64,000 nt of DNA from Muricea muricata (lineage: Eukaryota; Cnidaria; Anthozoa; Malacalcyonacea; Plexauridae): contig OY979718.1 of NCBI GenBank assembly GCA_963855995.1, forward strand, positions 59,374,564-59,438,563. The letters run 5' to 3'. The notes under the pieces are model-generated. The model saw nothing but the letters and a program-made list of their open reading frames with translations, did no database searches and was not told the DNA's origin. Made by a program: the position numbers and the translations under genes. This document shows, in pieces, positions 32,553 to 63,846 of this stretch (its first letter is position 1; every line of letters starts with the position of its first letter).

Positions 32553-32594
<42 letters not shown>
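31318..32594 (+). mobile_element. 5'-truncated LINE with (AAT)n tail
   Basis: Runs from the end of the 151-bp duplication to the (AAT)n tract (32553-32594). The 3' UTR is about 150 bp. The second copy of the duplication begins at 36089, directly after a matching (AAT)n tract at 36059-36090, indicating that the tail was later split by another insertion. Confidence 0.75.
32553..32594. repeat. (AAT)n microsatellite, left half
   Basis: 14 units ending the + strand LINE and abutting the 3' end of the minus-strand LINE. Its counterpart is at 36059-36090. Confidence 0.9.

Positions 32595-32595
<1 letters not shown>

Positions 32596-36058: not shown

Positions 36059-36090
<32 letters not shown>
36059..36090. 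repeat. (AAT)n microsatellite, right half
   Basis: Resumes exactly at the 5' end of the RLE-type LINE and leads directly into the second copy of the 151-bp duplication. Confidence 0.9.
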
Positions 36091-36092
<2 letters not shown>

Positions 36093-36424
36093 CTACGTTT
36101 CAATTAAACAAACAATATTACAGTCAAACCTCTAATTAGCGGACATCAACGGGGAACGTTCCTAGTGTCCGTTAATTAGAGGTGTCCGTTAGATGGAGGT
36201 CGAGTTGAATATTAACTTTGATAAATCACTTCCGTGTGGGATTCGCATTATAGTCTTACCGAAAAATGAAAACTTGTAAACGCTTCAAGCAACGACCTTT
36301 ACTCAGAGGAGTTCTCATTCAAACTGTCGAAAATTTAGACACCAGTTTTTGTTTATACCGCGGCTCACGTTGCTCTACCGAAATTTTTAAAAAGAAAAAA
36401 TTTAATAGGCATAATAGACCTAAT

Positions 36425-36564
36425 GCATAAGTCGTGACCCGGGCAGTGTATCCTAGGAAACAGGAATTTAGGCATTGCTATTGGTCACTGTTTGCAACGA
36501 GTGACCAATAACAATGCGTAAATTCCCGTTTCCTAGGATACACGGCCCGGATCACGACTTATGC
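36425..36564. repeat. 140-bp palindrome inside the Tigger element
   Basis: Arms beginning GCATAAGTCGTGA and ending TCACGACTTATGC, continuing through TGTATCCTAGGAAAC and ATTGGTCACT words. A foldback MITE inserted between the TIR and the transposase stop. Confidence 0.65.
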
Positions 36565-36638
36565 ACAGGGTCTATAAACACTGCTGTTGAGTACAGTTGA
36601 CTCTATATTTGTCAGTGTAGCTAGTTATGTAGGAAACG

Positions 36639-38196: not shown

Positions 38197-38389
38197 TTAC
38201 TTGGATCTGTACGTTTCTATTGATACAATGACGGCAAATAGAAACTTTTTTCATCGCCTCCCATCCTTCTGCTTCCTCAGGCGCAGGCGTTGAACAGTCC
38301 AGTGAAAAATTACATGTAGCATGCAAGCATTTAATGCATTTATACTTTGTTTCCTGACCACAGGAACAACATCTATCTTTGTTGTCCAT
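38180..38389 (-). CDS. Small cysteine-rich zinc-finger ORF at the transposase N-terminus
   Basis: 69 aa with CCSCGQETKYKCIKCLHATC and CRHCINRN, a CxxC/CxxC zinc-ribbon pattern. It overlaps the 5' edge of the transposase frame, same strand, and may be the real N-terminus of that protein with a one-base shift near 38185-38195. Alternatively a separate accessory ORF. Confidence 0.45.
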   Translation of the reverse strand: MDNKDRCCSCGQETKYKCIKCLHATCNFSLDCSTPAPEEAEGWEAMKKVSICRHCINRNVQIQVKYKPP

Positions 38390-38605
38390 AGTAATCTACC
38401 CAACGTTTTCGTGACTGTTGATATTATAAATACATGTTATGGGCGTCGTCGTGAGGCACGGTTCAGGCGGATTAAAATTACAACGAATTCGGTTGTGTTA
38501 GTTGTCTGTCATTGGTAATTTAACTTGTATTAATCAACAAAATATCAACAATAATTTCAACAGACATTTCGTGTTCGATCGTATATAAGAGGCTACCACG
38601 TCTAT

Positions 38606-39463: not shown

Positions 39464-42400
39464 ATGGCCTTCATCTCAATATTTGAAATCGCTTTCCTGT
39501 ACCTACTTATGTCTTTAATCCCTTGGGCAGCTAACATTCAAAAGAATGGAAAAAAAATTGAAAAATGGGCAGAACAATTTTCACTCGAGGTAAACAATAT
39601 CGTGAACAAGAATTCTGGTGTAGCCAAATTTCAGAGTCTCGTCGATCAAGCTTCATATCATACCATTTCAATCCAAGGGAATGAGCTTCTCGATAATATT
39701 TCAACTGGAATAGATGAAAAACTAAAAGATGTTGTTAGAACATTGATTTCAAATAAACTGTTATTGGAGTCTGAATTTCTCCACAACGATCAGTCATTCA
39801 GAACTGTACACTGCTGTGCTTCAAGAGACAATTTGAGATATGATGCAAGATTTAAAAACAACGTTGATACAAACTCATCATGTGTCATTGCACCAGGAGG
39901 AAATACATATTTGACGTCAAGCTTAGAGGACAATTATAAACGAAATGTTTTAACTTCAAGCGCCATCAAATGGCAATATTTTGGATCTAGAAATGGATTT
40001 TATCATCAATATCCTTCATCTGAACACCTTTGTTCTAAAGAAGAAAAATTTGATCCGCGATTAAGGTAATCAGACTGCTTGTAGAATTAATTTACAGAAA
40101 AAAAACATTTAATTGTGTAATTCATGTATTCCGCAGTCAGCATGCAACATTCCTACCCCAGATAGTAGATGGATATCTTGACTTCATTCCATAGTTGTAT
40201 TTTACAGTTTTATCACTGTTAATTTAACCATGCATATATGTTTCTAAAACGTTTTTCATACATATAGATTTCGATTTCTACGCATTTAACTTACTCTATG
40301 GTATTATAGTGTGCTGTTTGTTTTCTTGCAGGTTCTTTATGTTTTAAAATTTATACATTGTGTTGTTTTAAAATTAAACTGCGTGATTAAAATCATTGAT
40401 TTTAATACTGTTTAATGTTTTTTCTCTGTGACGTGCGACATCTAGTAAAGCCGAATCATGGCCATAATGATAATGAAAAGTATTTCACGTTCTATGCCCC
40501 GGAGAATATTTAAGTATTAATTTCCAGACCATCATGATATTCGTGCTTTTCACTCAACACTGTTTGTAGATATTTTGCAAAGTGATCTTGACAAATTCTG
40601 AGCATTTAGTAACATAACGAATGAAGTTAGCGTCCTGCGTGTTTCAAGAAAAGCAAGACGATTGCAAACACCCAATATTCGGTTAAATGCATTACCGTTT
40701 TTTTTTCACTGATGTTTAATATGAACAAGCCTCATTGTGTGCAGATCAGTGCCACGCTGCTATGGTAATGCAAACATGACCACTGTCATGTGTACGATAA
40801 CTCAATGCGTTTCATCTAATTGTTTTTCTTTTGATTAGATCAAGCGAACACAAAATGACAGGAGAAAGTATGCAAAACATTTTAACAGGAAAAAATATGC
40901 TTCTGAAACAAGACAATCGTCATAAGAAAATATTTTGAAAAGAAGCAATATAGCTATATGTACCATAGCTATTCTATATACTGTCTATAGACATTCCTTT
41001 CATTTGCTCTGATTCCTATTTGGAAAATTAAGAGAACAAGGCGTCATTTTTTGTCTGGTTTATCACAGTTTGGTCTTGGTGTGAGTTCGCTTAATAGCAA
41101 TAACATCTGGCAGTTTTTATTAGCTGAAATCCAACCATTGTGATATATACGGATCAGGCAGCCTCGTACCCAGGCGTCTCTTAGTGCAAAGTAAAACGCA
41201 TATATTAATTAAGTAATTTGATATGCAAGATATAACCGCGTGAGGAATTATGGGGAGGATGCGATGAATGAGCTTCCTTTCCCGCATGCTCCCCAAGCAC
41301 CCCTGCACGCTCAATCTGTAACTGATCTGCATATATGGTACTGGATTAACTGATGTCGTTGGCAACCAAAGCTGAGAAATGTTGTAACATTTTAATTTAG
41401 CTTTGTTTTCATATGGTAGCTTTTGGTTTCATCTATAAACAAACACCACAATCAACGAAATTACGAAAACCCTGCATTTTATATTACTGGAGAACAACTT
41501 TGTATGTTAAACGTTTAAACACTATGCCAAGTTTCATGACAAAAGAAGTAGAAAACTTATTGGAGTTTCCATACGGAGAACCTATAAAAACAGGCCCTGT
41601 GGTGTATACAGTATAAGGCGAGTTGTTTAACCGCTTAATGTGAATTGAACCTAGTCCTCACGTGAAAATACTGCGAGTTAACAATCTGCTGAAAGTTGTG
41701 GAGTAGTAATGTAGGGGCCGATCGACCAGGATTTTTAAGGTGTGGCAAGGTAGTACAAGGGGGCGCACGGTCGTGCATGAGGTGGTGCACCCTCATTAGC
41801 CGTTTTCACACTAGTTGACGAACAAGTCGTCTAGACGAACAAATCGTTTCAGACGGACAAATCGTCTGACGTGAAAACGGGACGGACAAATTTTCACACG
41901 ACTAAGTCGTCTGAATTTGTCCGACTATTTGTCCGTCGGTCAAGACGACTTTTAAGAGACGATTTGTTCGTCTGAATGAACAAGTCCTCAAAAATCGTCT
42001 TGAATTCATGTGAGTCGAACAAATCACGGACAAATTAAAATGTCGCTGCCGGAAGAGTCGTGGAACTAGCTCTAACAAAACAAAGTAACAACAATGGCGT
42101 CCAACGAGACAAGAACAAAGACCGCACACAGATATACTTTCTTTGCTACCTATTCTCCGAATTCAAATTACACGGACAAAGTAATAGACGATTCGTTCGT
42201 CTAGACGACTTGTTCGTCAACTAGTGTGAAAAGGGCTATTAAAATACTGCACTCTGACTGGTCTAGCAAGTGCGTGTGACGCAACGGGTGTACGTACAAG
42301 GTGAACAATATTTTTAAGGTGAGCAATATTTTTAAGGTGGTCAGGCAGGGTGATACATGAGGCTTCGCACCTTCATTAAAATACTGTGCTCTGATTTGTC

Positions 42401-45400
42401 GATTGATCGATCCGAAGATTGAATCATTGAATCCTAAGATTGAATAATTGAATAGTACGATTGAATTATTGAATTATGTACCCCCGTTACGTACACCCCA
42501 TGAAGTCACACGCAGTTGCTGGGCCAATCAGAGCACAGTATTTTAATGAGGGTGCACCACTTCATGCACCACCTCATGCACGACCTTGCACCCCCTAACC
42601 AACTTCAAAATTTCGTATAGTTCATGGTATGTGGATGCAGCAATGGCAACAAGGAAAAACCTAGTCATCATAATTGACCGAAGTGGGTCAATGAGTAGAG
42701 CCGGACGAATAGTTTTAGCAAAGGATGCTGCCTTAACTGTTCTGGAGACACTGACTGCTGATGATTACGTGAGTACATCTGTCAACAATAACAACAATAA
42801 AAATGCTGGTAAAGGCAGCAACAACAGTTTACTTTGACAATCACTGCTTTCAAAATTTACAGGTGACCGCGATTGCATTTTCGTCCTCTACTTCATTTCC
42901 TCCGGGATGTTTTGGAAGCACTCTAGCCAAGGCTACTGTTTCAAACGTGCAAGTTCTCAGAGATTGGATTCGTAACCTACATCCTAGTGGTACGTATGCC
43001 CAAAATTATTTTAAAATTATTATAAGAAAGGTAAACTATGTTGTGTTGATGGTAAGTGTTGGTTAACCGTGCAAAATTTGTCTAGCGGTTAAAAGGCCAG
43101 GAGTAATTATTTTTAATTTAATCAGAATTGTGAAACATATAGACGGACGTAGGGAAATTTGGGAAAGAAAACAAACCTAATAATTTTTCACTCTTCCATG
43201 GATACTTCTTCCTTGCAATTGATTACTTGATTTGATATGTCAGTTTGCATTACGTTGTTATTCTCTAAAGTAAGTGTGTTTGATAAAAAGTGATATTAAT
43301 TTTCTAACAAAGCTAGACATCTGTATACATCCTGAAATTATTAATATTTAATAAATTAATATATCATACATTCATTTTGCAATCTTTCTTCAGGAGGTAC
43401 GATGTATTCCCTGGCATTTAAAACTGCGTTTGATTGCTTGGTCAATTCTACTTCAACGAACAACGTAAGTATCTTCGATCATGCTATATTATACATTCAA
43501 CTCTGACCCGGCGGATGGCACCCCGCTGTGCAAATACCTGGCTAAAACTATTGGAAATTGTATTGGAAAAGCTATTACGGACTCTCGCCATTGCGACACT
43601 TTATATTACATAAACAAACAGTTTTATTCTTCTGCTCTCGCTGCAACAGACACATCTAACATTATCCAAACTCAACATCAATAGTGTATTTAATTTTTTT
43701 TACAAACCTCAACTATAGAAGCTGGAATGAATTTTCTACTGACATTTTAATTCCATGACAGGCGAGGGTATGCATGCATATCGCTCTCTGGGACCACTCT
43801 CTGCGTCTCTAAACCTGAACATCGCATTTATCGAATGAAAAAAGTTTCAATGATATTTCAATCTCAATAACTCGATAAGCGAGGTCATCATCATTTGAAT
43901 AGAACTTTGCACCATTAAGTTGTGCACGCATTCCAATCAAAAACGTTTTACAGAATGCAATTGTTATAAAATGAATTGTAGATTAATTAATGAATTGCGA
44001 ATGGTTTGTATTCGTTCAAATGAAACTCAAATGCACTCACTATGACGGTGATCATGACGTAAAAAGTGATACACGTCAAAACTGAAAAACATGTACACAT
44101 ACAAAATTAGTTCACTTGGTAGAGCGGGAAGGCAAACCCTAGAGTTGTTCCCCGGATAGCTCATCGACCAACTCTTACACTTTTTCTCGCTTTCGAAAAT
44201 TCCTGCATGCTCAATGGAGCACGTAAAGTCATGCATATTTACATTATTTCTCAATGAAATGCGGGAATGTCCCAATGGGTAGCGGTATTCAGTTGCGTAG
44301 ATTTCCTCTGTATTATTAACTTGCGCCATTTTATATAGGGAAGGAACATCATATTATTTCTTACTGACGGTGAACCATCGGATAATGCCCAAACAGAAAT
44401 ATATCCATCTACCAATCGAGGACAGCAACGAATGGTAACTCCTTATATAATTATTTCAAGCATAATTGGTGCATAATTACTCTATTTCTGCATTTACTGT
44501 TCTCAAAATGTTTGCTAATTTAAAAAATACACCATGAGTAAAGCTGCGTATGCTAATCGTCACGATTTGTAGCTAAAAGCTGAGCGAACGCGGCGAGTCC
44601 AAAGCTTCCAACCTTGGCTATTTAAACCAAGTCTTTCATCCGGCGTCTCTTGTAGCCACTTTATCTTTGTAGCTCATATAATTATGATCAGAAGCCCAGT
44701 TGTACGGTAGAACGACCGGTTACGACCGATATTTCAAAACTCAGAGCATTTGAAAAAGAGTGCAAGATGAGTGCCACGTATACGACTCAGAGGTGAACAG
44801 CGCTTGCTATCTTTACGATTTCACCACCAGAAATAAAATATACCGTGTTATTCCATCTCAAACCTAATTCAATCCACACTCACGGTAATTTATAGTATTT
44901 TATTATGGGGAAAGTCTGATCCCCATTTATTGCAGGCGTAGCAATAGTTTTGTTCTTTCTGAAGTTAATTAACATTTCGTTGCGTTTCTACATTTTGACT
45001 TTCATATTTTGCCCCTCGTGAGTTGTAGCACATACACTGTCTACGTTTTGTGAGTTTTTAATACAATAATAAAAAGGAGGTTCGATTTTACAATCCTGAG
45101 GGACGCCCACTTTTACTGGAAGGAAAACTAAATGACGTTGGGTTATCTGCTCATGTGCTATGTATACCAATACATAATATACATCTCGTCATTATTGTCT
45201 CTTCATTCTCTTAATTTAACTAATGGTAGTTGCGAGCCTCCTTAATTATTAATTAATTCTTAGTAGAGTAAAATACCGAGAACAAAGTTTCTTAGCAAGA
45301 TATAACTCGAGAGGCGTGTCTCGAAGAAAGCGTCCTGAGAGCCCAAGGCCCGAGGGGTGCTTTCTGAGGGCTTCGCACCCGAGGGGTGCTTTCTGAGGGC

Positions 45401-48400
45401 TTCGCACCCGAGGGATGCATTTCGCTAAGAAACTGACATCCGAGGTAATCAAAGAACTTACATACACACGAGGGCGCTTTCATTCCGAATTATTTCAAAA
45501 AGCTCCCGACTTGTTGACATAATTTAACGAAAACCAACATAAACCTCATCTAAGGACAAAAAGTAAAAACGAACCTGCACAAAATCTTCAACTTGAAATA
45601 TTCAAATTTGTGAAAATGCTGCAGGTCTCGAGATTTTGGTAACATAGTTGGTGAACATTAGATTCCTTGAGTGAAGTAGTTGCCAAAGGATCTCCGAAAT
45701 ATGACTGCCCAAGCAGTGAATCCCTTTATGACACAAAGTGGTTTCAAGCATGCAGAAGAAAACTTAATTGAGCAGCGTCTGTTTGGTGATGCGAAATAAC
45801 AACAGCTAAGTTTAAAAGAATTCGGGATTACGTTGCGAAAATACTGCTAAGGATTTGCCATGTGATAGAATGGAAAGCAGTAGGGAAAGTGCACGGCTTT
45901 GACTGCAAGAGAAGGGAAATTTTAATTACTGCACATTTAACTTTAACTAAATTGAGGGTTCTATTTTGTTGTGTGACATAAAAGAGAAGAAGTTTTGATT
46001 GTTTTTTGTATTTTTTAGACTGCATTATCCTTATAAACCCTCTTTTGTGGGGTTTTGATTATCAATTCAGTCAAATTCATCAACCCCGCTTTTCCCTGGA
46101 GAGATATCAAATAGAATCTTAGCCAAATAAAACCCTATTGAGAACAATAAAAATTCGCGCAAATTTAAACTAATATTATTTAGAGTTTAGAATTAATATT
46201 ATTTAGAACCACAGCGTAAGCATTCTGGCGTACGGCCTGGGTACGGGTATCAGCAGGAACAGAAATGCGATGGGAATTTTGAGAACAATCACAGAGAAAA
46301 ATAATGGACATTTCACTATGATTGAGGATGGGAGTAAAGAGAAATTAAACTCAGCTTTTGGAAGTTATTACCAATATTTTGTAACTGCCACAGGTAAACT
46401 GCAACTTTGATTGTCTTGAACTATAAATTTCCATGCCGTGTGTTCTTTGGTGAATTTTGTATAAATCAGTAGAAATATATATAGTATGTAAAAATAATGC
46501 AATTATAGGGATCCTTTCCTCATTCAATCTTCGAAAAGTGTTCATTAAAATTTTCTTTCTGTTTGCCGCTTATTTAGGACCGAGTTTGGCATGTCTGCCT
46601 CCTTTAACAGGATAAAACCGGAAGGTTTCACCAACATTTTACATTCGTGTCTTATTTAAAACACGAATAAGAATTTTTGTGCGATATAAAACGTGTTGGG
46701 CATTTCTTTTGTGTTTTGATCTCACTATAATTTCCTGGAAACACCACGTTTATTGCCGCAATTACATGGTGTTTCTACATAATTGTAGTGATATTGGTTT
46801 TCACCGTGCAAACTTAGGACTTAATCTGTCATCTATATAGGACAGTGAAAGAATATTAAGCTGCTAACTTCCTACTAAAATTCCCAATAGTCAAATATGC
46901 AATGTGAGCGCCCAAAAAATGAAGGAAAAAATATTATTTCAAATAAAGTTAACACATCAGTTGCCTTGCAAGACTACAACTATAACATTAAGCGTGATAT
47001 TTTTGACATTTGAATGTAAAACCGTGATTTTTCCATCGTTTTTTGTGCTCACATGGTACATTTGACTCTTATCAATGTCAATCTCACTGATTGAATTAGC
47101 TTTATAATGTTTTCTTGCAGGGAACGTCGCTCTTGGTAAACTAGCAAGTCAGTCAAGCGTAACGTTGAAACACTTTGCCAGTCTTGCTGTCGATGGTCGT
47201 TTAGATGGTAATTGTTCGCAAACAAATTATGAAGAAGATCCGTGGTGGAGAGTGGATTTACAAAGTGAATACTATATTATGGCTATTGTTATCCTAAACT
47301 GCTGCGATAATATCATGGAGAATGTTGAAGTTCGTATTGGGAGTAATGAAAACGGAGAATTAAACCAGTTATGTGGACATGTAGATGCTGTAGAAAATAA
47401 TAAAAACGCCATTATTCTCTGCTCTACTGACTTGTCCGGCCGTTATGTTCATCTGAATGTTCGAGGCAAAAATAGCAGCCTTTCAATGTGTGAAGTGAGA
47501 ATTTATGAAACTCTAGGTAATACATTATGCATGCATGCATTTTGTATTTGCGGCATGCAACATTATTTCACCCTGCTGTTTTTTTCAACTTATTTCAACT
47601 TAGGCATCCCGACCTGTCCTTTCTTTTCGCGTCAAGTCATGTTAAGTTGTTCTGTAGAGTCTCGAAAGTAAACGCCCTTCGAAAGTAAGCGCTTTTTTCA
47701 ACACTTGCTGGAGAATCTTAAAAGTAAGCGTCCTCTCGAATGGTTCGAAAGTACATGATCCCTCCCTTATGTAATGTAACTCTCTAAAAGCCATATGTAT
47801 ATCACATATACTCTAGCATGGATTTAAGCTTAGCCGATGCTGAAAATAACAAGTCGAAAGTAGGCGCCCATTGGAAATAAGCGCCTTCTCTAAAGCCACT
47901 AATATCAAAAGTAAGCAGGTCACCTACTTTGGAGACTCTACGCTACATACCATGATAAAATGAAGAATATCTTATAATTATTAGTTGACGTTATAAAATA
48001 ATCTAATTAACAAACAGATAACATTTTGCCACTGTCTGTCCAGTTATAGATACACGGTATGACGTCATAATGTGGTAAGAACAAAAAAATTGGCCCACGA
48101 GCCGCCTAGGCCAGTGGGTCACTGATGTTCTTACCACATTATGACGTCTACCGTGTATCTATAACTGAACAGACAGCGGCGAAATGTTATCTATTTGTTT
48201 TATATAATAAAAATGTGAAAATTTTTGCCAGAATAAGCTTTGTAGCGCGACGAAAAGACTTTAGCACGCCATTTGACGTGATCATGATCTAAACAAAACA
48301 AAGCACGCCATTGGCTGTCGATAATTCTAAAATTGCTGTGATTGGCTTGTCGCTGAAATGGCGTCAGCGTGCGTCTGTCCTCTTTTAGATCACAGTTCTC

Positions 48401-51400
48401 GACCAATGAAAATCCAGAATGAACTCTGATTATTATATAAAACTTTTTTCACTTTAGCGCCTTCATTAACTCTTTCCATGCCGTGCACAAGCGAAAATGG
48501 TACAATGTTTGGTGTCAGTGCTGTTGATATGGCATTGATTCACATTTTTTCACCACTGATCTCATTTTTATATGGACAGTACTCCTATGCTGTAGTCATT
48601 GATGTCGAAGGTAAAACATGCAACTGTACGTTATACCTATAGAGTCCCAGATGTTTCTAGAAATCATGTACCTAAGACATTTTATTATATATAACATGCA
48701 GACACCACAATAAAGTGTTTTTTGATATTACGTTTTCTGTCTTTAAAACCGGTGTAAGTCCGAATCGGTGTTAACGTAGCTATTTAAAATCACTTTTTCC
48801 CCCGAAGGAAGAGTGTGGATTCATCCAAGATCAGCAAATCCTGAAGGTAGTACCTTAGGACCTTCACTACTGCCTTTAAAAATCTATGAATCATGGGCAA
48901 ATGGTAAAGTCATGAAAACAATTTTAAACCAACCTAGCGGATACGCTAAGTTGAACAAGGTATGTTTCATTTGTAAGTTAAGATAAAATATCAATAACAA
49001 GTAATGTGTCTTTATAATGACGTGAACATGTAGCCATAAACAATAACTGGACATCTAACCACAAGACTAGCTCGCACTAAAGAGTCTAGTGTGATTTAAA
49101 CACGCAGATTAAATTCAGCCCGGAAAGAGATAAAATTAAATAAGATTACGATGTAAGGTAATTAACTGTAGGCAGTATAAAGTAGCTAGTATAAAGTAGC
49201 TAGTATACCCATATCCATAAGAACAATAAAATTTTAATGTGATGCAATTCATGCTAAGATTTTGAAGACGGCTAAAACTATCAAAACAATTAGACAACGT
49301 ACATGACATCACTGTACCTGTCGAAGACTGCAGACTGGCAGTCGAAAGCTCGTGTTATAATAAATTTTACGATCAGAGAACGTTTTCAGAAACTTATTAT
49401 GAATCCTGGTTGCGCATCTAGCATTTTTAATTTTAAAATAGCTCGATCGACAGATATATAAACGGCTGCGAGTATTTGTTCTCCATTGTTCTTTTTACGG
49501 ATTTTGTGGTTCTTGTGAGCATTGAAAACTGTAAATAAAAGCAAACTTTTGTATTATGAGTTTTAGATAGTTGGTTAAAAATATATATATGTACCCAAAC
49601 CTCTACTATTAATCTGAGAATTATGTTGCATTAATGCTATATTTTTTTTTCAGATTTTACTACAGATTTCTAACGGTTATTCCAGTGCAAATGGTATAGA
49701 GACAAAAGAAGTAAATGCTACAGTTCACTGGAAAAGACTCAGAAACATGTTTATTTTAATGATAGTTATGGTGCAGGATGAATTTAATATGTGGCTGGTA
49801 GGTTACTATCTCGACCGTGTTAAACGTAAGTTAAGTAGAGGAACATGTGTTTACAATATAATTGTTTTATGCGTTATGCAAGGAGGATTTTTCATGGGTA
49901 TATTATTTTTGTACTAACTGTTGTGATACCCTCTTTAGGTACCGAGAAACGCTGTTGGGGAAAAACCGTCTGTTAAAAAAGAATTCAAGTCTGTTGACAA
50001 AGGTTTTACTGTATGCCAGGTTAATGGCACCCCAATATTTACTCAACTTTCCTTAGTAAAAGTAAGTACCGGTATAATAACACGATATAACAGTTACGTG
50101 ACCAGGATTTCGATTTTGTTTCATGACAAATTCTCACCTTTACCAGTACTGTAGACGCAAGTGACATTTACTTCCGCATAAATCTCGGGGAAAAAAGAAA
50201 AGTTTACCTCGCCCATGTTTGATACCTAATGTTTCATTTGTACACGACGTGATTTTGGTAGAGTGCTAATGTGATGTGTAAATGTCCACATGTTACATAT
50301 TCTATTGTTATAGCTTACGTCACAAAATGCAAATGGTACTGTGGAATCGAAGAGCTTCGTTGGAACAAAACCCGACGATGATATATTTAAGAAAGTGGAA
50401 GGTATAAGACCGATACATTTAGGTATTTTGTTGAAAATCCTGCGTAAGTGTCGGCGTCTTTAGAGGAACTGCATTTAATGCAGTAGCATTAATACATGAG
50501 ATAAATGGGTTATTTTCCTGACATTCATACGAAGTGTCGACGTGAAGAAATACAAACATGTATGAGTATTTCATTGCTTGTTTCAGCCTTGCATCCAGGT
50601 ATTGTGCCTGACATGATAATTACTAGTTATCTTGAAAAGAACTGGAGAGCAAGTGAAAAGGAGGACGATGACTATATTATGTGGAGGTAAACGAAATAAT
50701 AAATGAAAAGTTCGACAACTGGTCTTTGTGTACCTGCTTTTTATTCGAATATCCGTATGCGATGATTGACTTTGCGTCGTAAAGTATTTGGAGTATAAAC
50801 AATATTGAATATTTATTGCGATAGCATTATTATCCCATATGATATAGCTTTATTTACCGAGCAAAGTGTTGTTTTTTCAGATACGTGGGTACAGAGTCTG
50901 GGGCTTACAGGAGATATCCTGGAGTTACATTGGTAGAAAATGTGAACCACAAACACAGTCCATGGTAAGTTTGTATATCATTTCTCATGGGAAGTGACCT
51001 TGTAAAAGCTATTTGAATAAGATTAAAATCAGGGATACAGGTGATACTTAAGCATGTTAATGAACTAATCATTGAAAGGAAATTTTTTGTGTCAGAAATT
51101 GAGCAATGAACACCATTTCGCATGTAAAAATCAAAAATGGGAAAAGAGAGAAAAGAGGAACATTGGCCGTGGAAGAATGACGTATTAATTGTTTTGAAGT
51201 AGATTGTTTTTTTCGGTCTGTATAGTCACAAATATATGAATAGTACATATTCCCCTCGCCCAATTATCAATCTTTTGCGGTAACCGAAAAGGAATGAAAA
51301 CAATGATGTAGTCAGGGCTTCTACAAAACTTATAGAAAGAAAAGATTGCATAATACACGCTATTGACCCCCCCCCCCCCCCCTCTAACGTAAAGTACCTT

Positions 51401-54400
51401 AAGTACTTTATAAACACTAAACGCCAAACAAAAGACGTGAACTTTATGTTGAAAACTGCTAAATTCCTTCTTTTTATGGTGACGCAAAATTTATGCGCAA
51501 GCACGCCAGAAGTGACACATAAATTCATGTTGCTGTTAGCGTATCTCTTTTTGATACAGTCACTGTCAAAGCTAGCTTATATAGGAAAACTTACGGCCTC
51601 TGTACAAAAAATATCCCATTATATTTCCTTTCCTTCAAACGCAACTATTTTATCCTTGCACACATCTTGTGTGTGTGTGGGGACCCATATTAATAGCATG
51701 CTTCATTTATGCAATATATTCACAATTCCCTCTTTCGCTTAATTCCACTTCACCCCCTAGGTGGGTAGTACTCTATAAATTATCAGTGGAAGCTCTGGTT
51801 AATTGCTCGAAAACCAGTTGTGAGTCAGGTGGTTGCATAGTAAGATGTATGGAAATAGAAGTGCCAGAAAATATTGAAGGGGTTTTTTTCAATCATTTAG
51901 GTATCGTCAAGCCGTGATGAATCCTGGCAAATCGGTTTTGTCACATTCCTTTGCTGATCCTTTTGGTCGAGGACAAGTTATCTCAATCAGTAAAGCAGTT
52001 TTTAAGAACAGGTTTTAGTGAACGGCAAAATAGGGCATCACGGGTAACCTGGGAAAATTTGTATATTTTGTCGTCAAAGAAATAATCAAAGCATTTTTTC
52101 GTGGTCCTTTTAAAGTAAATTAAATTTTCCCTGATTGCCCCTGATTCCCGGATTGAATGGACGCCCTTCATCAGGAGGTAATAGTAAGCTCTCAAGGTAT
52201 AGGTAAATATGCTATTAGCTATATAGATATTTTATTTACCGCTACATCTCATGTATATTTGTATAGAAAAACGCCTTATCACAATAATATGAAACATTCG
52301 CGGACAAGAATCATGGGAGTGGCTGGTATAGACATGTCATTTGTCTCTTTTAAAAGAATGGCACTGAATGTGGTAAATTAACTCAAATGCATGAAAATAA
52401 ATTGAAATAATTTTAAAGTAGATTACTTTTTCACACAATATTTGGATCATCCTTTTTGACAGATGCCAGGTTGTCTGGATGACTATGATTGTTTCTTAAT
52501 GGATCAAAGTGGGTAAGTCCGTTGACCGACCTCTATGCACTTGTTTTTAGCAATATATAACATCATGAGTTGAACGGGATCATTGTAGATATCTGTTTGT
52601 CAGTTTGAATGAAAATGACCAACCAGTTCATGTCACAGAAAAATTTTCTTGGATTGGAAAACTGCTGGTTGACACGATACCAGTTTTGAAGGTATATTGA
52701 TCGGAGCGAAATGTCTGCAATTTTCTAAATATTTTTTGAACAAGCCAGCAGTTCTTGCCGATATACGACGGCGGGATCACTGGGAATAACATATTATATT
52801 TTTGCTATATTTTATTTATTACAGCCCAGATGGTGTAACGATTTTGTGGATTTTAAAATCCAGTTCTCTTACGAAGCCATTGTCTCAACAACAATAATTT
52901 CCCAATCACCCGATAATTGTCGCCAATATATTCTTGTTCCCTTGGAAAATGTTAGCTCTTCATTATTGGCTATACCCTCTAGAAGAATTCACATCAATTG
53001 TGACGACACATTGTATAACGGCCATTTTGAGGTATTCAGATATGAAAGTTATAGAAGTAGTTAATTACATTCATTAAATGATAATATATAGCGAAAATAT
53101 AATTAAAGGGAAATGGCAACAAAAATTTTTGTCGTCTTATTTGAAAGAGACTCCAAAACAATGTATAGAAGTCAATTACAGAGTTTTTATATCTGCCTTA
53201 TTTGGTGAGATATTTTGACTTGAAATCTTTAGTTGTCCGCCATCTTGGATATTTGTTGATATGCATGACACGTCACAACTTGGGTCACGCAATTTTTTTT
53301 CTTAGGACACAATGATTAATCTTCTCGAATGACCACACACATAGTAAGTGTTTTGGATGTCAGCACGGACTGAAAAGGTTTCACAAATATTCTATTGGTG
53401 GTAGGTATTTAGGAGAAGCTTTGAATCGCTTATCCCTGTTGTGACGTCACTAAAACATTGTTAATGAGGTTAAAAATTAATCCAAGATGGTGGACAGTTC
53501 GATTATTTAGGTGAGAATATCTCTCGAAGTAAAACAGATATAAAAATTTTGTAATGGACTTCTATATATTATTTTAGAGTCTCTTTCAAATGAAAAAATA
53601 ATTTTTTTGTTGCCATTTCCCTTTAAACACAAATTATAATTCATGTTTTGTACAGGCTTGTCACTCATCTCAACCGTGTAAATCCTGTTTCGAAAACATC
53701 GCTAAGTGCCAGGTATTTCAAATTAAGTAAAATATACATTATTAGTAATTTTGGGGGCTAAAATGAACAAATTTATAATGAAAATGAACAAATTAATGAA
53801 TTTAGCCTGTGTTTCAGTCTGGTGCGCTGGCTGGCTGAATTTTAACTTGTCTTTTTGAGCAAGTAATTTTTGTATCTTTACGCACAAAATGACGACAAAA
53901 AGATCATCTTGTTTCTATAATTTCATTAAATAAATCCTTTCTTTTATTCTTATGAAGGGATATATGGCTATGAATTAAAAACAGCAAGAATTTGTTTTTG
54001 CAAAAAAGTTTATTTACATGTAAGCTTGTCGATGTTCGCTTGTTTTTAACACATAACATCATAATACCTGCTTTTTGAAACACAATATAAACTGAATTTG
54101 TAGTAAATGGTTTGTAGCGTGAACTGACGACATTGCAATTGATATTTTGTTCTTCGACTATTTCTTGTTCATTTGTTGTCTTTTATCTTGTAATTGCCCT
54201 CTAAAATTATTATAATATTAATAGAGTTGTATTCTTGGGCATAAATATGTTTTTGACTCTTCTCTTGTTCAGCCTTCACGGGCCAAAACATATTCATGCC
54301 CGCGAACATTGATCCATTGTTATAATATGCAAAAAAATTACCAAATATGTAAATTTGATTGTTTTTCGAACTGTGCTGAATGCACAGGTCAAAAAATCTA

Positions 54401-57400
54401 ATTGATTTAGTTTAATCTAATATGCTAGACGCTATGTTCATGTCCCATGTCGTTTGATCGATGCAGCAATTCACTAATGGACACATTTGCAGATATAACA
54501 TGTCCAGGTGAGTGTGAAATTCAGAGAGCCCCTTGAAACATGTAGTTAATTATATTTCGATTCTTCCTATATTCAATAAATAGTGTAAAAAGATTATAAT
54601 CATTTAATTTTCTTCACAGTGGAGCAGAACGTTTATTTTGGTTGCATTTTTATTTTATCTCGAATATATTAATGAACAATTCATCATTTTTTGTAGCTCC
54701 ATCTACGAACACAAGTCTGCTGAACGCTGATAAATCTGATCATAAAACTTTTAATTTAACAAAAATAGCAGAATGTCGGAAAGTTTGTAACACTGCGTAA
54801 GTAGTATGTGATAAACAATCATTAGCGCGATTACTAGTGTCGATAATTAGACGGAGGGGTGCTTATCAGTGGTGCATATACCTAATCTGCGTCCACAGAC
54901 CGTAGCTAGAATCAACATATGAATACCCCCCTCCCAATTACGCCACTCTTTACAGTTTTATGATCTGTTTATACCAATTACTAGTTTATAGTTTAGTGTG
55001 TGCACATTGACTCTTTATATGCACAAGAATAGCGAGACGCTCGAACTTCTTATCTCAGAACTATTTCAATTCTATTAACAGATCAAACAAAGAAAAATGT
55101 TCTGAAATGTCTCATTGTACATGGTGTGAAAATATCCTAGATTCATGCGAGAGCTTTTGTCCATTAAACCACAGGTATCGACAGAGCCGCAGCTATATAG
55201 CATAGCAGGACTAGGCCACTACGATTGAAATGTACTTTAACTATACAACTCCCACACTAGGCACCTCACTAAAAGGTCTAAAATGATTTTCTGTTTTTTT
55301 TAGTCAACGCATTGGTTTAAAATTTACTCTTGACTTGGATACATTAATAATCCACACATTAAATGAGGATGAAAAAACTGAAATCAAGAAAAATCTACAG
55401 CAGACGATGTACAATATTCTTGAGGAAAAGTTAGAAAATAATATTCGTGATGTTACATTTAAGAAGGTAACAGATAATCATCTGCTGTATGCAGGTCGTT
55501 CAAAAAATATGCATGTATTTGATGCATCATTTCGTAAAATACCCGAATGTATGTCTCTAAAGACACCTGATTTTCAATAGGGTTTGTCTCATTTCTCTAC
55601 AGCGAAAAATGTAATTTCGACAGGAAATTTTTATAGGGATCATATTGGCTTAAGTTGCCTTAAACCCTGCGGTTGGTTGTACGAAGGTAAATAGCGCTAC
55701 CTACCACAGATAGTAATTTTCTCAAGCTGTCTAAACATGTTTCAGGAAATAGCAAAACTCATATCAAAGTTCAGCATTTTCGAATTATTTATCTCTTGCT
55801 AGTTCAGTATCCCTATACTGTTACTGCTTTTTATGTCTTTCTGCGGCATCCCGCTCTTTATGGTGACGGAAAAAATTACGTTAATACATTATAAAGTTTC
55901 TTGAATGGATTAGCATTCAAGATATATTACATCCTAGACTATCTAGAAGAATGCCTGTGGTATTTGAAACAAGACTTCGGCAATTAAGAATAATTTCTTA
56001 GCATATAACATTTTGTGTAATGGACGTAACTCACAGAACATTGTATCATTTGGATTATTTTCTAGCATTCTATTACCGCAACAATTCAAGGATCTAGCAT
56101 GGCTGAAATTTATGAGAAACTGGACAAAATTAACGACACAATTGAGTCGAAAACGTTTTCCATAGACGTACCAGAGAATAAAGGGCGCAAGACAATTATT
56201 CCACAACAATTATTTATTTTAGGTACTCTATATATAATGTTTAGTATATGATGATGTTATTTAATCACTGTCTTATTTAGCAATTAGTCCAATTCCTGCT
56301 CACTTTTACTTGGTTTAAATTTCACCATGGGTTCACTGTATTTTACTTTATATCATAGATGTCAATGAATGTTTGACAAACGTGCATCATTGTCACATCA
56401 ATGCGACTTGTATTGACACTGAAGATTACTATAAATGTTTTTGTCAATTTGGTTTCATTGGCGATGGTAGAAACTGTACAGGTAGACTGTCTTGATCTCT
56501 TCTTTTATTTAGTGTCCTAACTACGTGCATTAATGTTTGGGAGAACAAACTCACACGCAGCCGTTTCAATTGTTAACCAACATATACATACATAAATACA
56601 TACAAATTGTTGATATTTTGGAGAACATCGCCACGTATGTTGCAGTACCAAATACTATTATAATTCGTGGCAACAACACTTGCACAACATAAAATATTTA
56701 ATTTTATCAAATTGGCTACCTAGTACAGATGCAGATATATACTATGAGTAAAGAACACGAATATCTGAGACAAACGTTGGAGCGGATAATGTTATAAATT
56801 GTCATTTTCACTCTTTACTCATTAAAATATAGGTTGTAAAATTTGAAATAATTTACTGTTTTAAAAAAAGGTAAAGTGGGAAATCCTAATACCACTTAGA
56901 GGCCATATTCTTAATGAGGTGGAAGACAAATTCTTGTCACTCATGGATCACCTGCAAATTGCGTCATGTTACATAATTATAATACTTATTATAATAGCTA
57001 ACATTTTTGAATGCCGATAGGGTTTCTCTCATTTCCAATATGCAGAGGACTTTTGTAAAAGTGTCCTACTCCTTCTAACTCTTTTTAACCATGCTCGTGA
57101 TATTTTTATCAGACAACAAGCACCTCATCTAGACTAAATTTAACGCATAATATGCTGTATTCCTCTAATTATTATTGGAAATTTAATTCATACCAGCACG
57201 CTACAATCGAGCTCTATACAAAAAAATTGTAATTTTTTTTATTTGGAAAGAATATGATTTCTATTTTTGTGTTTGTTGTCAGCTCCTAGCATAGTCCTTG
57301 AAGAAGTTCATTGTTTATTATCATTCTTTTTCCTTTAGATAAAAATGAGTGCCACCAACGACCTTGTCACCCTAATGCCACCTGCGCCAATTTTCCTGGT

Positions 57401-60400
57401 TCATTTTATTGCTCTTGTTTAAGTGGTTTTACTGGTAATGGAACATTCTGTGAAGGTAAACGTATAAAGAACAGAAGTATAGCTAAAATATCATTTTGCT
57501 ATGCGCAAGAAAGATTAACTTATGTATTAGTCGACTGCGCCGAAATTTCCAAAACAATGTATTTTTTATTCCTGTTTGTAATTTGGTAACTGCATGTTTG
57601 ATAAATTCGTGAATATATTGCCATATATTGCTAATTGATTTTCATCTGATAACAATACAACATGCATATATCAATAAATTATATCTTTTAAAAATACGTA
57701 ATGATTTATAGTTTTAATGTGCTTACAATTTAGCATTGTTTTTTTAGATCAAAACGAGTGCAATCAGAGACCTTGTCATTCCAATGCCACCTGTACAAAC
57801 GTTCCTGGATCGTTCAACTGCTCATGTCTGGATGGTTTTTCGGGTAATGGTACATTTTGTCAAGGTAAACACATAATATAGATACGACAAAAATCGACCT
57901 ATGCTTGCTTGTCGACGCTTATTTCTATTCCGTAGATCATTGTACCCCTTCGGCATTGTTGGACCCCTCATTGATCTCGTTCCGAGACTGCTCTGACTCA
58001 TTGAGATGAATTTGTATTATAAATACAAATTGTCTCGACGGCTTCCAGCACACTGTTAATTTCAGGGAGTAATTTTAACTCCACGTGGGGAGTCAAAATA
58101 ACTCCTTATAGGAGAGTAAAACTAGTGGAGTTAAATTTACTCCAAAAATGGAGTTAAAACTACTCTAGAATCCAAACTTTACTCCACCAAGAGTAAATTT
58201 AACTCCACTAAAGGAGTAAAAATAACTACAACTAATGGAGTAGAAATACCAGAGTAATTTTTACTCCAAAAAAATTACTCCCGGAGTTATTTTCACTCCA
58301 CTATTAATTGTAGTGAAAGGAGTAACTTACAGAATACTCTGTGTAGAGATCTACAGACATGTATTCATTTAAAATTATGATAAATGCACCATATCTATGT
58401 CACAAAGACGACTCAAAATATCGGGCATAGATTTGTTTTCGCAAGATTGCGTTATTTGTGCAGCCAAAATGTGATTGAATCTCTTGTAAGTTCGTGTTGA
58501 AATGAATATATGTTGTCCGTTTGTCCAATAGCAGTATGATATGAATGTTGCTGATTAAAAAATATAAACTATTTTGATTACGCTGACAAGTAGCTTTGTG
58601 TCCAGTTAATTACACAGATCAGTGGCAGTGCTACGCGCGCAAAGCTCGGCGGGATAGCGTCATTTCGAAGCGACGCCATATTTATATTTTCCACAATTAA
58701 AAGGTTTTATACAGCGAAGAAAGATACCATTTCAACCAAGATGAACGATGAAATAACTCCGTATACATCACGAAGGACGGCGTAAAACTCAGGTAAGCAA
58801 ATTCTTGTGGTTTTTGTATAGATAAAACAATTTAAATGTTTGATATTTACTGCCTCCCTTCCATGAGTGCATCGAAACACGTGTTCCATATTATAAATTT
58901 GAATTTCGCGCGATAGTATTTGGATTTAAAAAGAATTTATACGTTGAAATAAATAAATGCTTTTGCTTTCCTTGATGCATGGAATTCGGCTCAATATTAT
59001 TAGGATCAGTACTGTTAGAACCTTATCTTGTATTCCTAACTGTTAGAACCTTATATTGTAATGTGGCCATGACACAATGACTGAGTGCCAATCTAATGGG
59101 GAAGCCGGCGATAATATGTGCATTATTTCGTGAGTGTGTTGTTGCGTGTCATGGAAGTATAGCCAAAATTTGTTAGCTACCTAGCTTAAGGTAATATTGT
59201 AGCAGGGAAATTTGTGTGTTGCTAATTTGCTATGATGACTCAGCTTTAATGTGCTCAACCATTTCCTTCTCAGCAAAACACTACAATACTATCTTTATAT
59301 ATCTTGTTATACGGAGTATTTTGTATTTTTGATTGCCAAGGCTCTCCTCTTGATGAGCAAAATTCTCTGCTGTAAAAGATACAGCAAAATATAATAATAG
59401 TCAAAACTATTTATACTGTTAATTATCCTATTAGCATTGCTGCTGATATTACTGATATTATTAAATAGGAGAACAATGTTCATGAGTATTATAAGTAAGA
59501 CTTGCGTAACAAGAAAAGAGATATAAGTAATATATTTACCCAAGGAGCTGCAACCTCCAAGAAGTGATATTAAATCACCAAGTTTAAAAGTAACAAAATA
59601 CTAATTGCCCTATTGTCAACATCTTGTTACTGAATAGTCCTTAATGCAATCCATGTTTTACACCACACTACTTGAATTCGGGTCATTCCAATAAAGATTT
59701 GCAGGCCCTCTGGTAAAATTTGCTGTCCTTTAGGGAGGAAAGGAATAACATTGACTCATGGTAATAATGAAAGACAGTGGAACATGTAATTCACCATTAA
59801 TTAGTCTCACTGCACTTTTAGAAGTACCAGTAGTGCATCTTGTGTGTGACAATATAAACCTTTTTTGCCATACTGTATTTTTTCCACTCTCGGTCTCATA
59901 TACTGGATTTGTTATAGGGCCAATTTGTCTTACACCGGACTATTCTACTAATCAATAAAAGTGCTACTTTTTAAACTTTTAACCAAGCAGTCTGTTCATG
60001 TAAACTTTGCTATTTTATTCTATTTAATATCAAATAATTCTACTAGGAAAAGTGCTGACACACTAGAACATTTTGCATAGAAAAATTTATGATTGCCTCA
60101 TGTGTTATTGCATTAAAAGGTCATTTGAGAAAAGATCTATACCCCTCAGAGGAAATTTCTACCATTCAAGGAGTGGGATGTCTTGAGATGCCCAAAGGGA
60201 AAGTGAGGCATGTATAAGTTTGCCCAAGGGGTTACACTTTTTAAAAAGCCATTGTATTTATCAAGCAAAATGTTTGTAAATTAAAACGAAAAATAAATTG
60301 AATCATAGATGACGATGATGCCCTGGAAGGGGGAAGGTTGAATACCTGTGTGATATCTGAAGAGGCTGGGGGTATTTTTAATTTCCTCTGTGCAGGATCT

Positions 60401-63400: not shown

Positions 63401-63846
63401 GTCAAAATAGGCTCATAATTTTCAGCTACAACTGAAAATCCTTTGACTGACTCTGCAGCTGCACCTCTCGATGAACGCATAATGTACTCTAATTTCTGTA
63501 CATCAACTAAAGCACTGTTGTCTACAATGGATACTTTAACAGACTGATAATATGACTGCCAACACAAAATGTCCCCATCAAATGTTCGTAACTCAATCTT
63601 TGGTAGTTTAACTTGCACATTACATGTAGCTCCACTCGCATTGCTACTCTCAACATGATTATTAACACTTAAACATTGCATCATTCTAGCATTTGATGAA
63701 CAAAATCAGCTTATCATTTTTACGTTTAGATGAAAATGAGTGCAATCAAAGACCTTGTCATTCCAAAGCCAGTTGTGAAAATTTCCCTGGATCATTTAAT
63801 TGTTCATGTCTAAATGGTTTTTCTGGAAATGGCACATTTTGTCAAG
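39464..63846 (+). CDS. CACHD1/alpha2delta-like VWA-lectin-Cache-SEA-EGF protein (29 exons, 3' end outside window)
   Basis: Exons: 39464-40065, 42621-42768, 42863-42989, 43394-43464, 44339-44434, 46207-46393, 47121-47516, 48458-48610, 48808-48959, 49654-49797, 49939-50061, 50314-50401, 50587-50686, 50881-50964, 51901-52011, 52267-52372, 52463-52512, 52589-52691, 52825-53031, 53656-53712, 54429-54507, 54697-54796, 55082-55174, 55304-55466, 56066-56222, 56359-56481, 57339-57455, 57748-57864, 63730-63846; all in frame, 1,390 codons so far. Signal peptide, then VWA_N (AIKWQYFGSRNGFYHQYPS). VWA about 201-410 with intact MIDAS (DRSGS; LTDGEPSDN). F-type lectin 411-542 on one phase 1-1 exon. dCache to about 1016 (YAVVIDVEG, RYVGTESGAYRRYPG, MGVAGIDMSF). 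Cys-rich/PSI-like (CSEMSHCTWC) to 1126, SEA to 1232, then four EGF domains. Cell-surface or secreted. Relatives modulate voltage-gated Ca channels; the added lectin and EGFs suggest adhesion (inference). Least certain: the exon ending 49797 and the exons at 52267 and 54429. Confidence 0.88.
41758..42593. mobile_element. Outer MITE, split by a second element
   Basis: The left piece (GGGGGCGCACGGTCGTGCAT...GGTGCACCCTCATTA) and the right piece (TAATGAGGGTGCACC...GCACGACCTTGCACCCCC) are inverse complements. Inside, AAAATACTGCACTCTGA and TCAGAGCACAGTATTTT also pair. Lies in intron 1 of the CACHD1-like gene; its right end is 27 bp before the exon 2 acceptor. Confidence 0.7.
41799..42235. mobile_element. 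Inner foldback element (GACGAAC-rich)
   Basis: TIRs GCCGTTTTCACACTAGTTGA / TCAACTAGTGTGAAAAGGGC with dense internal AGACGA/TCGTCT words. Inserted into the outer MITE at TTA, probably duplicating TTA or TA, which fits PIF/Harbinger or Tc1/mariner-type non-autonomous elements. An internal stretch (42040-42180) is unpaired. Confidence 0.7.
45335..45425. repeat. Short tandem repeat, about 32-bp unit
   Basis: CGAGGGGTGCTTTCTGAGGG...TTCGCACC occurs in two full copies and one partial copy in intron 5 of the CACHD1-like gene. Otherwise introns 4-6 (43465-47120) show nothing recognisable. Confidence 0.6.
47653..47941. mobile_element. MITE with GTAGAGTCTC termini
   Basis: Left end GTAGAGTCTCGAAAGTA and right end TACTTTGGAGACTCTAC are imperfect inverse complements. 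The interior holds several AAAGTAAGCGC-like words on one strand. Lies about 140 bp after the lectin exon. Confidence 0.55.
48009..48200. mobile_element. 190-bp palindromic element
   Basis: AACAAACAGATAACATTT at the left pairs with AAATGTTATCTATTTGTTT at the right, continuing through GATACACGG, GACGTCATAATGTGGTAAGA and its complement. Same plan and similar motifs (GACGTCAT, AAGAACAAAAA) as the inner palindrome at 9465-9655. Confidence 0.65.
49319..49385. repeat. Possible retroelement 3' hairpin fragment
   Basis: GAAGACTGCAGACTGGCAGTC followed by GAAAGCTCG and an AATAAA-like run resembles the stem-loop found near the 3' ends of some cnidarian Penelope/LINE elements. No coding remnant is attached. 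Confidence 0.3.
51181..51290. mobile_element. Degenerate hAT-type MITE copy
   Basis: GAAGTAGATTGTTTTTTTCG, GGTCTGTATAGTCACAAATA and CCCCTCGCCCAATTATCA align with the interior and right arm of the 1913-2067 element; the left end is eroded. Lies in intron 14 (50965-51900) of the CACHD1-like gene, which also carries a poly-C run at about 51367 and no gene. Confidence 0.5.
53107..53622. mobile_element. 516-bp MITE with TTAA duplication
   Basis: TIRs AGGGAAATGGCAACAAAAA / TTTTTGTTGCCATTTCCCT flanked on both sides by TTAA. Arms extend about 120 bp (TTTGAAAGAGACTC; ATAGAAGTC; GCCATCTTGGAT / ATCCAAGATGGTGG). TTAA fits Kolobok or piggyBac-type elements. Confidence 0.75.
54838..54950. mobile_element. 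Degenerate hAT-type MITE copy
   Basis: GTGTCGATAATTAGACGGAGGGG at the left and CATATGAATACCCCCCTCCC near the right correspond to the arms of the element at 1913; the interior has TCCACAGACCGTAG. Located between exons 22 and 23 of the CACHD1-like gene. Confidence 0.55.
58051..61330. mobile_element. 3.3-kb transposon with CACTGTTA ends and GGAGTAAA subterminal repeats
   Basis: Ends CACTGTTAATTTCAGGGAGTA and, inverted, CACTGTTATTTTCAAGGAGTA. Each end has about 270 bp packed with direct and inverted copies of GGAGTAAAATT/AATTTTACTCC. CACTG ends are seen in CMC/Chapaev-type elements; the target duplication is unclear (possibly CA). The 2.7-kb interior has only short ORFs without recognisable domains, so this is presumably non-autonomous. 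Confidence 0.6.
61335..61410 (+). tRNA. tRNA-like sequence (probable pseudogene or SINE head)
   Basis: TTAGCTCAGTCGTCCTGGC resembles an A box/D arm, and GGTTCGAATCCC is a perfect B box/T arm at correct distance. The putative acceptor strands (CTCGTTG and CTGGAGC) do not pair, so it is not a functional tRNA as read. No anticodon is assigned. Confidence 0.35.
62148..62762 (-). pseudogene. BEL/Pao retrotransposon protease region
   Basis: After a proline/lysine-rich repeat linker (KPPQDKPPQEKPP), the frame carries an aspartyl protease domain of the Pao type with the catalytic triplet in CFLDSGSQTSFI, followed by GFGGK and a stop at 62148. No reverse transcriptase follows in the minus direction, so the copy is truncated downstream. 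Separated from gag by a frameshift caused by a 19-bp duplication. Confidence 0.8.
62713..62750. repeat. 19-bp tandem duplication at the gag/protease junction
   Basis: GGTTTATCTGTATGGAGAA is present twice head to tail (62713-62731 and 62732-62750). 19 is not a multiple of three, so it accounts for the frame change between gag and protease. Confidence 0.9.
62716..63684 (-). pseudogene. BEL/Pao retrotransposon gag
   Basis: 322-codon ORF starting ATG at 63684. It shows the gag pattern of BEL/Pao elements (DUF1759-like): LPKIELRTFDGDILCWQSY near the start, then FGHSRLILDAHMRGLIHLP, and zinc-knuckle-like cysteine clusters near the C-terminus (CAFCGKDHNEWSC, CFLCLKSGNRSTSC, CKHC). Assembles the particle core in the parent element. 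Reads out of frame into a stop just after the 19-bp duplication. No LTRs were identified, so the copy is truncated at both sides. It lies in the last intron of the CACHD1-like gene in the opposite orientation, 46 bp from EGF exon 29. Confidence 0.82.

What the first reader, a model, noticed from the sequence alone, without database searches (positions are those of the whole stretch)
39464..63846. New domain architecture: a CACHD1/alpha2delta-type protein carrying an F-type lectin, SEA and EGF repeats
The exons give signal peptide, VWA_N, VWA, fucolectin, dCache, Cys-rich/PSI-like, SEA and at least four EGF domains. Established alpha2delta and CACHD1 proteins have VWA_N-VWA-Cache and then a membrane anchor. 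A lectin inside and SEA-EGF behind suggest a Ca-channel-subunit-like fold reused for sugar-dependent adhesion or recognition. All 29 exons are in phase with intact MIDAS, so this is not a random fusion of neighbouring genes. This is the best candidate in the window for an undescribed system.
Basis: partly seen in the sequence, partly recalled or inferred. Interest (0 to 1): 0.82.

Follow-up and report, generated by a model that had tools for sequence, protein, structure and literature searches.

The report
Octocoral CACHD1-like receptor with built-in lectin
In a soft-coral-type genome, a relative of a brain protein that tunes calcium channels and Wnt receptors seems to have gained a lectin-shaped module and an EGF stalk; the lectin has lost the usual fucose-holding residues, so it probably recognises something else.

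Summary
The gene is real and mostly as described. A spliced model of 33 exons (30 in the window) is open and in phase from ATG 39464 to a TGA about 2.3 kb beyond the window. It encodes a signal peptide, VWA_N-VWA with intact MIDAS, an F-type lectin domain on one phase 1-1 exon, the rest of the Cache region, a Cys-rich region, a SEA-like stretch, six EGFs, a transmembrane helix and a cytoplasmic tail. The mitochondrial contig marks the genome as an octocoral. Without the lectin the protein matches CACHD1 best (2.1e-39; alpha2delta-1 4.1e-25); the genome has a separate alpha2delta gene. Corrections: the lectin lacks the fucose motif, so 'sugar-dependent' is unsupported; SEA is not confirmed by Pfam; the amino-acid-binding Arg of dCache1 is Ser; homology of the FZD-binding region is only moderately supported. 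An in-phase alternative end (TM exon at 55808, stop soon after) could make a short, CACHD1-like isoform. This is a new variant of a known kind, with domains added by exon shuffling. Splicing and function are inferred, not shown.

The parts
39464..40065 (+). exon 1: signal peptide and VWA_N region
   Evidence: VWA_N 1e-11; hydrophobic start
42621..42768 (+). exon 2: VWA start, MIDAS DRSGS
42863..42989 (+). exon 3: VWA
43394..43464 (+). exon 4: VWA, MIDAS Thr (GGT)
44339..44434 (+). exon 5: VWA, MIDAS Asp (TDG)
46207..46393 (+). exon 6: VWA end, intron phase 1 after it
47121..47516 (+). exon 7: whole F-type lectin domain, phase 1-1, no fucose motif
48458..48610 (+). exon 8: Cache 1, second part
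   Evidence: aligned to CACHD1 from chain residue 481
48808..48959 (+). exon 9: Cache 1
49666..49797 (+). exon 10: Cache region
49939..50061 (+). exon 11: Cache region (borders less certain)
50314..50401 (+). exon 12: Cache region (donor uncertain: 50401, 50422 or 50443)
50587..50686 (+). exon 13: Cache 2 (acceptor 50587 or 50599)
50881..50964 (+). exon 14: Cache 2
51761..51828 (+). exon 15: Cache 2
52175..52202 (+). exon 16: Cache 2 (short, less certain)
52267..52372 (+). exon 17: Cache 2
52463..52512 (+). exon 18: Cache 2
52589..52691 (+). exon 19: Cache 2 (acceptor weak, chosen by homology)
52825..53031 (+). exon 20: start of the C-terminal stretch compared with the CACHD1 region that holds FZI
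53656..53712 (+). exon 21: Cys-rich region
54429..54507 (+). exon 22: Cys-rich region (acceptor weak)
54697..54796 (+). exon 23: Cys-rich region
55304..55466 (+). exon 25: SEA-like, first half (unproven)
55808..55904 (+). possible alternative last exon: transmembrane stretch, short tail and stop, in phase with exon 24
   Evidence: 1 of 53 background windows has a phase-compatible one
56066..56222 (+). exon 26: SEA-like, second half (unproven)
56359..56481 (+). exon 27: EGF 1
57339..57455 (+). exon 28: EGF 2
57748..57864 (+). exon 29: EGF 3
63730..63846 (+). exon 30: EGF 4; EGF 5, EGF 6 and the TM/tail exon follow outside the window at G000:C3:59438726-59440851

Best explanation
A single-pass type I surface receptor of an octocoral, built on a CACHD1-like ectodomain. 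An exon-coded F-type lectin domain was inserted by exon shuffling (phase 1-1 exon) directly behind the VWA domain, that is, between the two halves of the first double Cache domain. A SEA-like stretch, six calcium-binding-type EGFs and a transmembrane-plus-tail exon lie behind the Cys-rich region. Most likely it works as a cell-surface adaptor or co-receptor, as CACHD1 does (binding Wnt receptors and/or modulating Ca channels), held further from the membrane by an EGF stalk. The lectin fold probably serves as a protein- or non-fucose-binding surface. Shown: open, in-phase sequence, domain identities and loss of the fucose motif. Inferred: splicing, surface location and partners.
For: One open in-phase path of 33 exons with GT-AG introns; coding signal far above resampled sequence. 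Pfam VWA_N 1e-11, VWA 1.9e-10, F5_F8_type_C_2 2e-11, EGF_CA 8.2e-34 with six stretches. CACHD1 is the best solved relative, 2.1e-39, aligned over chain 60-423 and 481-1057; an earlier model gave 5.5e-20. The last exon has a hydrophobic stretch (KD19 2.03) and a charged tail. The lectin has no ATG ahead of the domain in its open frame and fills one symmetric exon. An alpha2delta gene lies elsewhere (C10) and shows the reverse ranking. FZD/LRP6 bridging by CACHD1: PMC7615972 (passages).
Against: No transcript, expression or binding data. A possible alternative TM end at 55808 is in phase with exon 24. The Cys-rich part alone is no better than shuffles that keep Cys positions (310 of 2000 reach the score; last part 117 of 2000); the whole C-terminal stretch is moderately better (18 of 2000), and alone it finds no CACHD1 in the PDB up to E 10. 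SEA is not found by Pfam. The Cache segment that in the genome's alpha2delta reads TWSPPYLDALGLG was not found next to the lectin exon by eye. No same-order relative could be searched.
Confidence: 0.6

Rival explanations
1. The CACHD1-like gene ends, always or in some transcripts, at its own transmembrane exon (55808-55904), as vertebrate CACHD1 has its membrane helix directly behind its ectodomain. The SEA-like/EGF/TM part is then an alternative 3' end or belongs to a second gene.
For: Acceptor 55808 is in phase with exon 24, and acceptor 55803 with exon 25; KD19 2.47, stop soon after. Of 53 background windows 3 hold a TM stretch with acceptor and 1 a phase-compatible one; of 15 introns of this gene scanned, 1 (57865-63729) does. 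EGF exons are all phase 1-1 and could join many partners.
Against: No signal-peptide first exon was found feeding the SEA-like second half or EGFs 1-4; two weak ones could feed 55304, but they lie inside introns of this gene. The screens are simple consensus scans and strict.
Confidence: 0.25
2. One reading: a sugar-dependent adhesion or recognition protein using an active lectin domain.
For: True F-type lectin by sequence, with the contiguous Cys pair kept. The review says that domains deviating from the motif may have other specificities rather than none (PMC5712786 passages).
Against: His, Arg and Arg contacts and the Asp of HX24RXDX4(R/K) are replaced or deleted; the calcium motif reads AVDGR, not AVDG[N/D/S].
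Confidence: 0.08
3. The lectin exon is an optional cassette or an intronic fossil, so the usual protein is CACHD1-like without a lectin.
For: A symmetric 396-base exon can be skipped without changing frame; a Cache segment expected next to it is missing from my model.
Against: 396 bases open, strong acceptor (5.2), many lectin core residues kept.
Confidence: 0.12

Closest known systems
[quoted passage not shown]
   Same: VWA_N, VWA, Cache regions and a Cys-rich region in the same order; type I membrane protein with cytoplasmic tail; best PDB relative (PMC7615972 passages)
   Different: Here: intact MIDAS (vertebrate Cachd1 disrupted, PMC6231325 passages), lectin behind VWA, SEA-like stretch and six EGFs before the membrane
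[quoted passage not shown]
   Same: VWA with intact MIDAS in the Cache region
   Different: Lower score than CACHD1; TM plus tail instead of a hydrophobic C-terminus; third Arg of the amino-acid motif is Ser; the genome has a separate alpha2delta on C10
F-type lectins (eel agglutinin, MsaFBP32)
   Same: Domain-length match, 2.3e-12 and 6.8e-31
   Different: Fucose motif lost; nested in a receptor. F-type lectins joined to other domains, such as furrowed with CCP domains, and members with a broken motif are known (PMC5712786 passages)

Membership tests
CACHD1 | sequence closer to CACHD1 than to alpha2delta over the whole ectodomain | tested here: met
   2.1e-39 over two stretches against 4.1e-25 for the VWA part; reverse order for the C10 gene. 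No tree was made, so orthology is not shown
CACHD1 | type I transmembrane protein with cytoplasmic tail | tested here: met
   hydrophobic stretch and tail in the last exon; a hydropathy reading only
CACHD1 | FZD-interaction (FZI) region | tested here: inconclusive
   18 of 2000 Cys-keeping shuffles reach the score for the whole stretch, 310 of 2000 for the Cys-rich part; no CACHD1 match alone; exact FZI borders not known to me
CACHD1 | disrupted MIDAS (reported property of vertebrate Cachd1) | tested here: not met
   DRSGS/GGT/TDG intact; a vertebrate property, so I call the protein CACHD1-like, not CACHD1
CACHD1 | binding to FZD/LRP6 or calcium channels | not testable with these tools
   needs experiments
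alpha2delta | amino-acid-binding motif YxxxRxWY ... Y...D in dCache1 | tested here: not met
   FDPRLSSWY: Tyr to Phe, Arg to Ser; second-part Tyr segment not found (motif from PMC9901441 passages)
alpha2delta | short hydrophobic C-terminus (GPI type; recalled) | tested here: not met
   TM plus tail; the C10 gene ends in a hydrophobic stretch. The possible short end at 55808 would have a tail of about a dozen residues
F-type lectin | domain-length sequence match | tested here: met
F-type lectin | fucose motif HX24RXDX4(R/K) | tested here: not met
   motif from PMC5712786 (passages)
SEA domain | match to Pfam SEA | tested here: not met
   no match up to E 1 for two splice versions; none at this locus
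Calcium-binding EGF | match to EGF_CA | tested here: met
   8.2e-34, six stretches

The most novel reading that the evidence does not exclude
An octocoral turned its CACHD1-like Wnt-receptor/Ca-channel adaptor into a long-reach recognition receptor by inserting a fucose-blind lectin domain into the split first Cache domain and adding an EGF stalk, while keeping an older membrane exon for a short isoform. Two alternative ends of one gene would then give a near-membrane adaptor and a long cell-cell form.
Probability: 0.15. Interest if true: 0.72.

Novelty: new variant of a known kind. Interest (0 to 1): 0.5.

Why it matters
A review (PMC9901441, passages) says that in animals Cache domains are found only in alpha2delta proteins and Cachd1. 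A non-bilaterian animal with a CACHD1-like protein carrying extra recognition modules would show this scaffold being rebuilt by exon shuffling. It would make testable whether Wnt-receptor binding by CACHD1 is older than bilaterians, and whether the disrupted MIDAS of vertebrate Cachd1 is a later loss.

Tried and rejected
Gene-finder exons 61301-61381 and 62023-62323 were dropped: the second lies partly opposite the minus-strand gag-like ORF 62148-62822; the first was dropped by judgement only. A stretch reading FLPHYDVYR (about 48126-48153) looked like the missing Cache segment but lies in an inverted-repeat element. Exons 55304-55548 plus 55603-55686 were replaced by 55304-55466 plus 56066-56222; neither version gives a Pfam SEA match, nor a PDB match better than E 0.2. 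The choice rests on a recalled likeness to the SEA strand order, which was not tested. Pfam VGCC_alpha2 gave nothing in the genome or in its controls, so it says nothing. AlphaFold2 of the lectin exon alone was poor (mean pLDDT 54.3) and is not used. The first motif counts were faulty: one search read minus-strand loci on the wrong strand, and the loosened half-motif (18 of 29) also caught matches away from the site; one search recounts. The first signal-peptide scan missed the known start; one search corrects it. The global alignment failed and was not repeated; only local alignments are used. Paper searches touching this architecture; I saw no description in their listings, in a library that lacks most subscription journals.

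Full report
Setting. The window is G000:C3:59374564-59438563 of a 453 Mb assembly in 74 contigs. Contig C74 (19,292 bases) is mitochondrial. The 4.3 kb of it that I hold has cox1 and the start of a frame I read as nad1 on the minus strand, and frames I read as cox2, atp8 and atp6 on the plus strand; C74 also carries a MutS gene (2.3e-32). By established knowledge (recalled) a mitochondrial MutS and this order mark octocorals. Only cox1 and MutS were named by a search.

Observation. A dynamic-programming gene finder starting at ATG 39464 gave a chain of exons, which I corrected by hand with homology in view. The final model has 33 exons, 4788 coding bases, no stop inside, GT-AG introns and consistent phases; 30 exons lie in the window. 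As a control, the same finder, started from codon use of exon 1 and retrained on its own output, with splice sites at 61900-63720 masked, gained 254.9 bits (37 exons, low penalty) and 126.9 bits (17 exons, high penalty) on the real sequence; on 20 resampled sequences each the means were 64.6 and 8.0 and the maxima 98.2 and 26.2. Resampling keeps dinucleotides only on average, and these runs are not my hand-corrected model.

Domains. Pfam finds VWA_N (1e-11), VWA (1.9e-10), F5_F8_type_C_2 (2e-11) and six EGF stretches (EGF_CA 8.2e-34); Cache only as a sub-threshold sCache match (0.041). Against solved structures the model without the lectin gives CACHD1 2.1e-39 in two stretches, chain 60-423 and 481-1057, and alpha2delta-1 4.1e-25 in the VWA_N/VWA part; an earlier model gave 5.5e-20 for CACHD1. 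The lectin alone gives MsaFBP32 6.8e-31 and the eel lectin 2.3e-12.

The right-hand end. Outside the window come EGF 5 and EGF 6, partial or frame-broken remnants of further EGF exons, and a last exon with a hydrophobic stretch (KD19 2.03), a charged tail and TGA at window-scale 66286-66288, which is C3:59440849-59440851.

The lectin. It fills one 396-base exon with phase 1 on both sides, so it could have been added, and could be skipped, without a frame change. F-type lectins hold fucose with His, Arg and Arg in HX24RXDX4(R/K); the cation motif is h2DGx (PMC5712786, passages). In the alignment with MsaFBP32 the His is Gln, the Arg-x-Asp falls in a gap and the second Arg is Ile, while the contiguous Cys pair is kept. 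No form of the motif is found in the window lectin. One search listed 33 lectin matches in the genome, the window's own included; three had no locus, so 29 others were examined. Of these, 14 contain RxDx4(R/K), 11 of them at the expected place (RxDCCxxR); 3, which are near-identical copies and one of which has a stop, also have the His at a spacing within 22-28; none has it at exactly 24. Many of the 29 are partial matches that do not reach the His. The same review notes other family members with a broken motif, with changed or lost specificity, so a different sugar is not excluded.

CACHD1 or alpha2delta. The VWA query found this gene and one place on C10. The C10 gene is an alpha2delta: joined pieces give alpha2delta-1 5.9e-29 ahead of CACHD1 1.2e-23; it has TWSPPYLDALGLG and DPRVRPWY, and ends in a hydrophobic stretch. 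No second CACHD1-like gene was seen: the Cache query found 12 places in this gene and one non-significant hit (E 0.949), and the Cys-rich/SEA-like query found this gene only. The Cache query did not find the C10 gene either, so its reach is limited. The window protein has an intact MIDAS, unlike vertebrate Cachd1 (PMC6231325, passages), but Ser in place of the Arg of the amino-acid-binding motif (motif: PMC9901441, passages). CACHD1 bridges FZD5 and LRP6 through a C-terminal FZI domain and the first Cache domain (PMC7615972, passages). The matching C-terminal stretch here scores 81 against CACHD1. Full shuffles reach this 1 time in 2000 and 0 in 2000; shuffles keeping Cys positions 18 in 2000. 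For the Cys-rich part alone the figures are 29 and 310 in 2000, for the last part 8 and 117 in 2000. Alone the stretch finds no CACHD1 in the PDB. So homology is likely for the whole stretch and unproven for the Cys-rich part. CACHD1-annotated transcripts have been reported in Acropora (PMC4320547, one passage).

SEA. Pfam SEA does not match either splice version up to E 1, nor this locus, while 25 of 74 listed matches elsewhere pass the cut-off. The label SEA-like rests on position and an untested, recalled likeness.

One gene or two. A TM-coding stretch at 55808-55904 is in phase with exon 24 (and, from 55803, with exon 25) and ends in a stop. Of 53 background windows, 3 held a TM stretch with an acceptor and 1 a phase-compatible one; of 15 introns of this gene, 1 did. 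This is the best evidence against a single long product, and it would give vertebrate-like CACHD1 topology. On the other side, no first exon with a signal peptide feeds the SEA-like second half or EGFs 1-4; two weak candidates feed 55304 from inside this gene's introns. That scan is strict: it finds the known start but nothing in 19 background windows. The two ends may be isoforms.

Conclusion. A real, apparently intact, domain-shuffled CACHD1-like receptor of an octocoral: a new variant of a known kind. The sugar-recognition reading is not supported. Mechanism is inferred.

Noticed in passing
G000:C10, about 13029710-13045776, minus strand: A separate alpha2delta gene with DPRVRPWY and PYLDALG motifs and a hydrophobic C-terminus; no lectin or EGF part was noticed among its open frames.
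   Followed up: partly
G000:C3:59488527-59504000 (L006-L007): About 50 kb downstream lies another F-type lectin, split over exons, in front of many fibronectin-III-like frames, a discoidin-like stretch and a TM-like stretch: perhaps a second lectin-bearing receptor gene (my reading).
   Followed up: no
G000:C3:59438923-59440361 (L001): Partial or frame-broken EGF exon remnants between intact ones: EGF exons seem to be gained and lost.
   Followed up: partly
G000:C5:16229963-16294159: Cluster of F-type lectin stretches; two with a locus (L038, L042) have a stop in the matched part.
   Followed up: no
G000:C1:38414782-38416095: Second cox1 match in a nuclear contig, with one stop: looks like a nuclear copy of mitochondrial DNA.
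   Followed up: no
window 25129-26289: Single open frame that reads like a rhodopsin-type neuropeptide GPCR (my reading).
   Followed up: no
window 31271-38395 and 62148-63705: Transposon-like open frames (reverse transcriptases, a DDE-type transposase, a gag-like frame); listed only.
   Followed up: no
window 48050-48155: Inverted-repeat element in the intron after the lectin exon.
   Followed up: no
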